A stretch of 46,717 nt of DNA from Elusimicrobiaceae bacterium (GTDB lineage Bacteria; Elusimicrobiota; Elusimicrobia; Elusimicrobiales; Elusimicrobiaceae), in the NCBI GenBank assembly GCA_017646765.1, contig JAGCMD010000028.1, forward strand, positions 1-46,717, read 5' to 3'. How positions within the stretch are numbered: the stretch's first letter is position 1; every line of letters starts with the position of its first letter. The notes under the pieces are model-generated. The model was not told the origin of the DNA. It saw only the letters and a list, made by a program, of their open reading frames with translations, and searched no databases. Below are positions 30,057-32,109 of the stretch, piece by piece. The translations under genes were made by a program, and so were the position numbers.

Positions 30057-31208
30057 TTATTGGTATATTAAAGCGCGGAACTGCGAGGTTTGGTTTAAGC
30101 CTTTAAACATCCAGCCCTTCTTATCTTCTTTATACAGCGACTCTATATCTTTAAAATTTCGTTTTAAAGCGTTGTCTAAATTGGCATATGCTTTGTTGCG
30201 GTCTTTCTTGCTTAGCCAATACCAACCGGCCAAATTGATATAAGGGGTCGGCGCGGAATTATCCAAGGAGATAGCCGTTTCCAAATCTTTTTTGGCACCG
30301 TCCCAATTTTTCAAATGTATCCGCACAAACCCGCGGTTGTTAAACGGTATTGCCCATTTGGGGTTGAGTTCTATTGCTTTTGTATAGTCGTCCTGTGCGT
30401 TGGCAAATTGTCCGAGTTCTTCGTATACAATGCCGCGCCGGTTATAAAAGAGCGCGTCGGGTTGTAGGGCCAATAGCGTAGTATAATCGGCCAAGGCAGC
30501 TTCTAAATCGCCCATTTCTTTAAACGCGTTGGCCCGGTAGCGATACGCCGCAGAGAAGGTGGTATCCCGGTTAATAGATTTACTAAAGCAGGAAACCGCC
30601 TCATCCAGTTCGTTGCGTCCAAAGAATATGCGTCCGCGCCAATAATGGCCGGGGGCACTGTCTGCCCGGGACGATTTATCCAGTAGCCGCAAGGCTTTAT
30701 CGTACCGGTAGGCTCCGATGTAAGCGGGCATCATTTCCATAATCATTTTATCGTCGGCGGGCGGGCGACTTTGTTCGTAATCGGCAACGGCTTGTTCGTG
30801 TTTTCCCAAATGCAAGTAAACTTGTGCGCGGGCCCGATAAAAATTTTTATAAGACGGTTTTAATGAAATGGCTTCGTTTAAGTCCGCCAGTGCCAAGGAC
30901 CAATGTTGCGTATCCATATAATCTAATGCACGGGCGTAGTAACGGAAAGCGTCTTTAGGGCGGAGTTTTATGGTGCGGGAATAGTCTTCCACGGCCTGCT
31001 TGTGTTTGCCCAAACGGCGGTACGCGTCTGCCCGGTAGTGGTAAGCATCTGCCAAATTGGGCGATTTCTCCACCGCTTGTGTTAAGAGTTTGATTTGGAC
31101 TTGCGGGTCAGTTTCTGCCTTAGCTTTGGCCAGCAACGCCGTAGCGCGTTGGCCCCAAACGCTGGCCGCGCATATACATAAAAGTAACGTAAAACCTATC
31201 TTGCGCAT
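30057..31208 (-). CDS. Secreted TPR-repeat protein
   Basis: 383 residues. A signal peptide (1-19, ending VWG-QR) is followed by about nine tetratricopeptide repeats over residues 20-345 (for example ADAYHYRADAYRRLGKHKQAV, LFYNRRGIVYEELGQFANAQ, AIPFNNRGFVRIHLKNWDGAK). TPR solenoids are protein-binding scaffolds, and here the location would be the periplasm or the outer-membrane inner face. The ATG has no Shine-Dalgarno sequence. An exact TATAAT ends 7 nt upstream, with TTGGGT 18 nt further as a -35, so the mRNA is probably leaderless and monocistronic. The partner is not evident. Confidence 0.85.
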   Translation of the reverse strand: MRKIGFTLLLCICAASVWGQRATALLAKAKAETDPQVQIKLLTQAVEKSPNLADAYHYRADAYRRLGKHKQAVEDYSRTIKLRPKDAFRYYARALDYMDTQHWSLALADLNEAISLKPSYKNFYRARAQVYLHLGKHEQAVADYEQSRPPADDKMIMEMMPAYIGAYRYDKALRLLDKSSRADSAPGHYWRGRIFFGRNELDEAVSCFSKSINRDTTFSAAYRYRANAFKEMGDLEAALADYTTLLALQPDALFYNRRGIVYEELGQFANAQDDYTKAIELNPKWAIPFNNRGFVRIHLKNWDGAKKDLETAISLDNSAPTPYINLAGWYWLSKKDRNKAYANLDNALKRNFKDIESLYKEDKKGWMFKGLNQTSQFRALIYQ

Positions 31209-31215
31209 ATATTAA

Positions 31216-31245
31216 ATTATAGTAAACTACCAACGAATTACCCAA
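31216..31245 (-). promoter_or_regulatory. Promoter of the TPR gene, leaderless start
   Basis: TTGGGT (31245-31240), an 18-nt spacer and TATAAT (31221-31216) are followed by TTAATAT and the ATG. It overlaps the 3' end of the upstream membrane-protein gene. Confidence 0.65.
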
Positions 31246-31958
31246 ATAATATTTAGTAACAAAAAGAGAAGTCCCATTAAGTAAAGCACCCCTAAAATAA
31301 GCGTAGTGAAAAGGCGCAAGTTGAGCAGTACCGCCCCGACGAGGGTGGCTTTCCCGGCGAAAATTTTACTTACTTTTACGGTGGTGCCGGCCAATTTTAC
31401 GATGCGGGCCGTTAATACCGCGCGTACGGCCAACATCAACGCACCTAATCCTACAAAGGCAATCCAGCGAGGCATGGAACCTCGTTGGGCGGATTGAAAA
31501 ACTTCTTTAACACTGCCGCGCACTAAAATTTTGGCTTGGTCCTTTGCTATACCTTCTTGTAAAGTATCTAAATGGGAAACCATTTTTTCTTGCACGCTAT
31601 CTATGGTGTTGTCAATAAACTCATCCCACTCCACGCATGCTTGCCGCAACGCACACACGCCGGCGGTGAGTAACGCGTAACCTAAAAAGAAAATCCCATA
31701 CCCGCTTAGAAAAAGTACCGCCAATATGTTTTTAAGTAGTTCCGGCAGCGCGGAGGGGTTCCATACAAATCGGTAAGCTAAAAAAGAGAGTAATATAAAA
31801 GCGGCCAAGCAGGCGGCCAGGTGCGGTAGAAATGTTTTTTGTAGGACGCTAATTAAGGTTCTTAGCCCTTGTTGCAAGGCCGAGAAAGCCGGCTTTTCCT
31901 GATTGGGGGCTGGGCTTAATTTAATGGGATGTACTACTTGATTAGGCTTAGTGTTCAT
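31227..31958 (-). CDS. Polytopic inner-membrane protein of unknown function
   Basis: 243 residues from the ATG at 31958. The frame is open to a TTG at 32003, but that region is fully used by a coupled small gene in another frame, and the sequence ATGAACACTAA joins the two. It has two hydrophobic helices at about 45-64 and 72-98, an acidic, helical soluble segment (about 100-155, with EWDEFIDNTIDSVQEKM), and two or three more helices (about 162-182 and 200-240). I do not recognise the family. Coupling to a Cys/His-rich mini-protein may hint at metal-linked or redox regulation, but that is speculation. Confidence 0.7.
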   Translation of the reverse strand: MNTKPNQVVHPIKLSPAPNQEKPAFSALQQGLRTLISVLQKTFLPHLAACLAAFILLSFLAYRFVWNPSALPELLKNILAVLFLSGYGIFFLGYALLTAGVCALRQACVEWDEFIDNTIDSVQEKMVSHLDTLQEGIAKDQAKILVRGSVKEVFQSAQRGSMPRWIAFVGLGALMLAVRAVLTARIVKLAGTTVKVSKIFAGKATLVGAVLLNLRLFTTLILGVLYLMGLLFLLLNIIWVIRW

Positions 31959-32094
31959 GGCCAACGCAATGGCCGCAGCAACCGTTGCAAACATGCTTGG
32001 CAAGTTTATTTACGGAAGGGACCCGGTCAGACACTTTGACCATTTTGCCTAATTTTTTATCGTACACATACGTACCGGTAGCATTTTCGGACAT
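31948..32094 (-). CDS. 48-residue Cys/His-rich mini-protein
   Basis: Reading from the ATG at 32094 gives a 48-residue protein. The first part has the ordered-looking segment TYVYDKKLGKMVKVSDRVPSV. The tail CNGCCGHCVGHEH has four Cys and three His residues in 13 positions and should bind a metal such as zinc, copper or iron. It has no signal peptide, so it is probably cytoplasmic. The start lies 6 nt after an extended -10 box (TGCTATAAT), which implies a leaderless mRNA. Its stop codon overlaps the start of the downstream membrane-protein gene. The conserved-looking body, the exact promoter and the coupling argue that it is a real gene despite its size. Confidence 0.7.
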   Translation of the reverse strand: MSENATGTYVYDKKLGKMVKVSDRVPSVNKLAKHVCNGCCGHCVGHEH

Positions 32095-32100
32095 AGTACT

Positions 32101-32109
32101 ATTATAGCA
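32101..32109 (-). promoter_or_regulatory. Extended -10 promoter of the mini-protein gene
   Basis: On the minus strand TGCTATAAT is followed by AGTACT and the ATG at 32094. The same nonamer occurs before rbfA and before the DUF4912 gene. No -35 box is clear. Confidence 0.65.

What the first reader, a model, noticed from the sequence alone, without database searches (positions are those of the whole stretch)
31948..32094. Unlisted 48-residue Cys/His-rich mini-protein coupled to a membrane protein
A short frame, below usual annotation limits, has its own extended -10 promoter, a likely leaderless start, and a stop that overlaps the next gene as ATGAACACTAA. Its tail CNGCCGHCVGHEH looks like a metal site. 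The body has a distinctive YVYDKKLGKMVKVSDRVP segment, which looks conserved rather than random. It also corrects the start of the downstream membrane protein to 31958.
Basis: partly seen in the sequence, partly recalled or inferred. Interest (0 to 1): 0.6.

Follow-up and report, generated by a model that had tools for sequence, protein, structure and literature searches.

The report
Conserved Cys-rich mini-protein of Elusimicrobia
A tiny 48-residue, cysteine-rich protein that the gene-family databases searched do not contain is real and conserved across a whole class of bacteria (Elusimicrobia); in this family of the class it is made together with a membrane protein, apparently from an mRNA with no leader, and its job, probably binding metal or sensing redox state, is unknown.

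Summary
The 48-codon frame at 31948-32094(-) is real. It is found in 50 of 66 same-genus genomes and, by profile, in about 170 of 341 genomes of the phylum Elusimicrobiota. dN/dS is about 0.03-0.16 for close pairs, and pN<pS in 903 of 903 pairs. No Pfam or NCBIfam family matches. The body (TGTYVYDKKLGKMVKVSDRVP) is a confidently predicted beta-hairpin; the tail is disordered and always holds at least 3 Cys, with variable spacing.

The extended -10 lies 6-7 nt before the ATG in 33 of 43 same-genus copies. Genome-wide, the same arrangement occurs 16 times against 0 in the control and mostly heads real-looking genes, so leaderless expression is likely. The 11-nt stop/start overlap with a membrane protein is kept in 41 of 43 copies, with no Shine-Dalgarno, so the two are probably translationally coupled.

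Corrections: the membrane partner exists only in one family. Elsewhere the gene sits beside tRNA-Arg. The terminal H-E-H partly encodes the next start codon and is absent outside that family, so it is not a conserved metal ligand. Two relatives carry an FmdB-type zinc ribbon in front of the same body and tail.

Best function guess, mostly inferred: a small thiol/metal redox adaptor that works like FmdB/Ruc but fails FmdB membership.

The parts
31948..32094 (-). 48-codon gene of the Cys-rich mini-protein (ATG 32094-32092, TAA 31950-31948)
   Evidence: conserved in 50/66 same-genus genomes and 170/341 phylum genomes; purifying selection
32101..32109 (-). extended -10 promoter element TGCTATAAT, 6 nt before the ATG (predicted start of transcription at or next to the ATG: leaderless)
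   Evidence: kept at 6-7 nt in 33 of 43 same-genus copies; same arrangement 16 times in the genome versus 0 in the reversed-pattern control
32014..32079 (-). conserved body TGTYVYDKKLGKMVKVSDRVPS (residues 6-27), predicted beta-hairpin 8-12 / 17-22
   Evidence: invariant T6 G7 Y9 D12 K20 S22 in 52 rows; AlphaFold2 pLDDT about 93 for residues 11-20
31951..31989 (-). Cys/His-rich tail (residues 36-48; Cys 36, 39, 40, 43), predicted disordered
   Evidence: at least 3 Cys in all 80 relatives, spacing variable; pLDDT about 50
31948..31958 (-). 11-nt overlap ATGAACACTAA: start codon of the membrane gene inside the end of the mini-gene
   Evidence: same -11 offset in 41 of 43 same-genus copies; no Shine-Dalgarno-like word before it in 42 of 43
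31227..31958 (-). membrane protein of 243 aa (partner in Elusimicrobiaceae), predicted long-helix bundle, no known family
30057..31208 (-). TPR-repeat protein with an apparent signal peptide, third gene of the conserved cluster
   Evidence: Pfam TPR; follows mini-gene and membrane gene in 31 family loci

Best explanation
This is a genuine small-protein gene of a family confined, as far as searched, to the class Elusimicrobia. SHOWN by comparison: the protein is under purifying selection; it has a conserved hairpin body and a thiol-rich tail; in Elusimicrobiaceae the stop/start overlap with a membrane-protein gene is maintained. STRONGLY INDICATED: in this genus it is transcribed from an extended -10 whose start point falls on the ATG, so the mRNA is leaderless, and ribosomes that finish the mini-gene re-start on the overlapping ATG of the membrane gene. 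INFERRED: the hairpin is a docking or structural element, and the flexible Cys tail binds a soft metal (Zn(II) or an Fe-S cluster) or switches between thiol and disulfide, acting as a small cytosolic redox/metal-responsive adaptor or chaperone in the manner of FmdB/Ruc proteins. In Elusimicrobiaceae it is made alongside, and perhaps acts on, the membrane protein.
For: Conservation and selection. Body hairpin and disordered tail. Leaderless signal: 33/43 copies with TGnTATAAT 6-7 nt before ATG; own genome 16 hits versus 0 control, 12 of them at exactly 6 nt and none at 5, and 13 of the 15 other sites open frames of at least 111 codons, several recognisable by eye as SmpB, RbfA, RNase HII and HIT proteins. 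Coupling: 41/43 keep the 11-nt overlap, no Shine-Dalgarno; mini-gene and membrane gene are present together or absent together in the genus apart from contig-edge fragments. FmdB link: two relatives in different families carry an FmdB-type zinc ribbon ahead of the same body and tail (PF09723 E=5e-6, TIGR02605 E=1.6e-5). The FmdB-like protein Ruc (Rv0991c) is a zinc-binding, oxidation-activated chaperone with a disordered tail (PMC7448276; that Ruc belongs to the FmdB-type family is my own knowledge, the paper does not use the name).
Against: No direct evidence of metal binding, redox activity or contact with the membrane protein. Cys number (3-7) and spacing vary, unlike a fixed zinc site. The mini-protein lacks the four-Cys ribbon that binds the zinc in Ruc. 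Most of the class lacks the membrane partner, so its core function cannot need it. Neither model matched a solved structure.
Confidence: 0.35

Rival explanations
1. Cis-acting leader: the mini-gene mainly serves to load ribosomes for the membrane gene (translational coupling or attenuation), and the peptide itself matters little.
For: Conserved 11-nt overlap and absence of a Shine-Dalgarno before the membrane gene; leaderless start.
Against: The amino-acid sequence is under selection, and the same protein is kept in families where no membrane gene follows. Coupling is a later addition.
Confidence: 0.12
2. Metallothionein-like buffer: the tail simply stores or detoxifies soft metal ions.
For: At least 3 Cys in every member, 5-7 in most Elusimicrobiaceae, flexible tail.
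Against: The most conserved part is the hairpin, not the tail (median pN 0.15 versus 0.34); 3-4 Cys in most of the class is few for a store.
Confidence: 0.15
3. Precursor of a modified peptide (RiPP): conserved leader (hairpin) and variable Cys-rich core.
For: Conserved N-part and variable Cys/Gly-rich C-part.
Against: No maturase, protease or exporter was recognised as a recurring neighbour; neighbours differ between families. Inherited class-wide like a housekeeping gene.
Confidence: 0.07
4. Function tied to tRNA-Arg(GCG) or its processing or modification, with which the gene sits over most of the class.
For: tRNA-Arg(gcg) is the neighbour on the same strand in 36-39 of 48 loci outside the family and divergent in 17 of 32 within it.
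Against: A few families and part of this genus, including the window, have lost the link; simple vertical synteny or use of the tRNA promoter explains it as well.
Confidence: 0.08

Closest known systems
FmdB-family zinc ribbon proteins (TIGR02605 CxxC_CxxC_SSSS, PF09723 Zn_ribbon_8), including M. tuberculosis Ruc/Rv0991c
   Same: Small, two-part, Cys-containing protein with a disordered hydrophilic tail; two relatives (G069:C78, G182:C7) have an FmdB-type ribbon fused in front of the same body and tail.
   Different: The window protein and nearly all relatives lack the N-terminal four-Cys ribbon and do not match either model; the Cys are in the tail instead.
Phage proteins encoded just after the portal gene (IMG/VR contigs 3300009034_000678 and 3300010412_000050)
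   Same: Begin with the same hairpin motif (TGTYVYDKETGKIVKISDEIPNV; 64% identity over the aligned part for one).
   Different: Longer, no comparable Cys tail, other context; only two clear cases, so a shared origin is open.
Redox-regulated chaperones in general (Hsp33, Ruc)
   Same: Proposed mode of action only.
   Different: No sequence relation shown; no test of activity here.

Membership tests
FmdB family (TIGR02605 / PF09723) | Match to the family model at the curated cut-off | tested here: not met
   No match for the window protein; fused relatives match below cut-off (24.9 of 31.3 bits; 26.8 of 34.4)
FmdB family (TIGR02605 / PF09723) | N-terminal zinc ribbon with CxxC...CxxC | tested here: not met
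   No Cys before residue 36 in the window protein; present only in the G069:C78 and G182:C7 relatives
FmdB family (TIGR02605 / PF09723) | Variable, hydrophilic, disordered C-terminal tail | tested here: met
   pLDDT about 50 for residues 31-48; variable tails
Ruc-type redox chaperone | Zn binding and oxidation-activated holdase activity | not testable with these tools
   Needs purified protein
Leaderless gene | Transcription start at or within a few nt of the start codon | tested here: inconclusive
   -10 spacing of 6-7 nt in 33/43 copies and a genome-wide excess; no 5'-end data
Translationally coupled gene pair | Conserved stop/start overlap without a Shine-Dalgarno for the second gene | tested here: met
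   41/43 with the same 11-nt overlap; 1/43 with an SD-like word
RiPP precursor | Adjacent maturation or export genes | tested here: not met
   None recognised among recurring neighbours

The most novel reading that the evidence does not exclude
A class-wide family of hairpin-plus-thiol-tail mini-proteins, in essence an FmdB/Ruc-type protein reduced to its second half, which ancestrally travelled with tRNA-Arg and in Elusimicrobiaceae was re-wired to a leaderless promoter and translationally coupled to a membrane protein to form a redox- or metal-responsive membrane module.
Probability: 0.25. Interest if true: 0.65.

Novelty: new variant of a known kind. Interest (0 to 1): 0.5.

Why it matters
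It adds an unannotated protein family to a poorly studied phylum, found as a tiny frame that the searched family libraries do not contain, and it shows how a mini-gene changes hands: from beside a tRNA gene to a leaderless, overlapping operon. The by-product, clear in-silico evidence that this genome uses leaderless genes from extended -10 promoters for housekeeping functions, is testable in the cultured Elusimicrobium minutum.

Tried and rejected
Known families: Pfam, NCBIfam and PHROGs (only weak scattered hits) gave nothing usable. PDB sequence profile search and Foldseek with both models gave no credible match; a two-strand hairpin is too small for a fold search. Rfam found nothing in the window. 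Plasmids: no match. Phages collection with the viral relative: no match; two further viral pattern hits were chance or too short to use. ThiF, ThiS/AOR and UppP genes near the gene in other families were considered as functional partners, but each is confined to a lineage, so rejected. Four apparent N-terminal extensions with extra Cys (L126, L154, L179, L184) are start mis-assignments (upstream sequence or tRNA) and were not taken as real.

Full report
OBSERVATION. The reading frame at 31948-32094 on the minus strand encodes MSENATGTYVYDKKLGKMVKVSDRVPSVNKLAKHVCNGCCGHCVGHEH, exactly as described. Dozens of frames of this size exist in the region, so length proves nothing; comparison does. The window lies in a 1.35 Mb genome. 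Its relatives in the named collection are Elusimicrobium/Elusimicrobiaceae, largely from rumen and other gut metagenomes.

CONSERVATION. A search with the single protein finds it in 50 of 66 same-genus genomes with no internal stop. A profile finds it in 170 of 341 genomes of the phylum, at E-values down to 1e-15 in other families; one of these (G013, with an internal stop) is likely chance. All but one of the hits lie in the same class. A scan of 84,980 named species for the most conserved stretch found relatives only under Elusimicrobia or Elusimicrobiota titles, plus a number of MAGs titled only 'bacterium'; it used one short pattern, so distant relatives elsewhere are not excluded. Among 43 same-genus copies, pN is below pS in all 903 pairs. 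Close pairs have dN/dS of about 0.03-0.16, and the window against its nearest relative gives pS 0.49, pN 0.10. The body is more constrained than the tail (median pN 0.15 against 0.34). The frame is therefore a protein-coding gene. No Pfam or NCBIfam model matches.

EXPRESSION SIGNALS. In 33 of 43 same-genus copies TGnTATAAT ends exactly 6 (28) or 7 (5) nt before the ATG. With the usual spacing between a -10 element and the start point (general knowledge), transcription would begin on or next to the ATG. The same arrangement occurs 16 times in this genome and never in the reversed-pattern control. Twelve are at 6 nt, four at 7, none at 5. Thirteen of the other 15 open frames of at least 111 codons, among them proteins I recognise by eye as SmpB, RbfA, RNase HII and a HIT protein. 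Leaderless expression is thus likely a general habit of this organism. Six of the ten copies without the exact motif have a GGAG-like word instead, and in several of these the gene abuts an upstream glycosyltransferase-like frame. The computational survey of leaderless genes found in the library does not mention this phylum (PMC3160421, by term count only).

COUPLING TO THE MEMBRANE PROTEIN. The membrane gene's ATG lies 11 nt before the end of the mini-gene in 41 of 43 copies, with an SD-like word in only one. In the two exceptions a GTG two codons earlier, in the same frame, can take its place (read). This supports the corrected start at 31958. Within the genus the two genes are found together or missing together; the two genomes with only the membrane gene have it at a contig edge. 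A TPR protein with an apparent signal peptide follows in 31 family loci. AlphaFold2 gives the membrane protein a long-helix architecture (mean pLDDT 83) with no fold match. The overlap imposes CATGA on the mini-gene, so the C-terminal H-E/D-D/H is partly dual coding: such an end is found in 25 of 32 family members and 0 of 48 outside. Those His residues should not be read as conserved metal ligands.

OUTSIDE THE FAMILY. In other families the membrane gene is absent and the mini-gene follows tRNA-Arg(gcg) on the same strand, often within 10-35 nt (36 of 48 loci, 39 if three mis-assigned starts are corrected). In 17 of 32 loci of this family the tRNA-Arg is still next door but divergent; one member (L161) has tRNA-Arg, mini-gene and a membrane-protein frame in one row. 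The window has lost the tRNA. The ancestral setting was most likely next to tRNA-Arg; the leaderless promoter and the membrane overlap are later (inference).

STRUCTURE AND FUNCTION. The body is predicted as a beta-hairpin (pLDDT about 93) and the tail as disordered. Every one of 80 relatives has at least three tail Cys, but number (3-7) and spacing vary; the window has four. Two relatives in different families, G069:C78 and G182:C7, carry an FmdB-type zinc ribbon ahead of the same body and tail (for G182, PF09723 E=5e-6 and TIGR02605 E=1.6e-5, both below the curated cut-offs). Ruc (Rv0991c), an FmdB-like protein, binds zinc, has a disordered tail and becomes a chaperone on oxidation (PMC7448276). 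My best guess is a small thiol/metal redox adaptor that works like such proteins. It is not a member of FmdB, because the ribbon and the model match were tested and not met. This functional step is inferred, with confidence about one third.

VERDICT. A real, unannotated, class-wide mini-protein: the gene is certain for practical purposes, leaderless expression and coupling are likely, and function is open.

Noticed in passing
G000, 16 sites (e.g. G000:C29:15741, G000:C31:25045, G000:C87:16839): TGnTATAAT 6-7 nt before an ATG occurs 16 times against 0 in the control and heads long frames resembling SmpB, RbfA, RNase HII and HIT: this genome appears to use leaderless mRNAs for housekeeping genes.
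   Followed up: partly
L127-L194 (other families), L116-L160 (same family): The mini-gene is a conserved neighbour of tRNA-Arg with anticodon GCG (not the usual ACG) across much of the class; same strand outside the family, divergent within it.
   Followed up: partly
L245:2998-3312 and L246:2959-3342 (IMG/VR contigs): The same hairpin motif (TGTYVYDKETGKIVKISDEIPNV) opens phage proteins encoded just after the portal-like gene; shared origin or convergence is open.
   Followed up: partly
L231 (G182:C7) and L065/L223 (G069:C78): Two natural fusions of an FmdB-type zinc ribbon with the body and Cys tail of this family.
   Followed up: yes
L129-L194, downstream of the mini-gene: In other families ThiF (tested by Pfam/NCBIfam) and, nearby, a ThiS-like protein next to an aldehyde ferredoxin oxidoreductase-like frame recur; not linked to the mini-gene across lineages.
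   Followed up: partly
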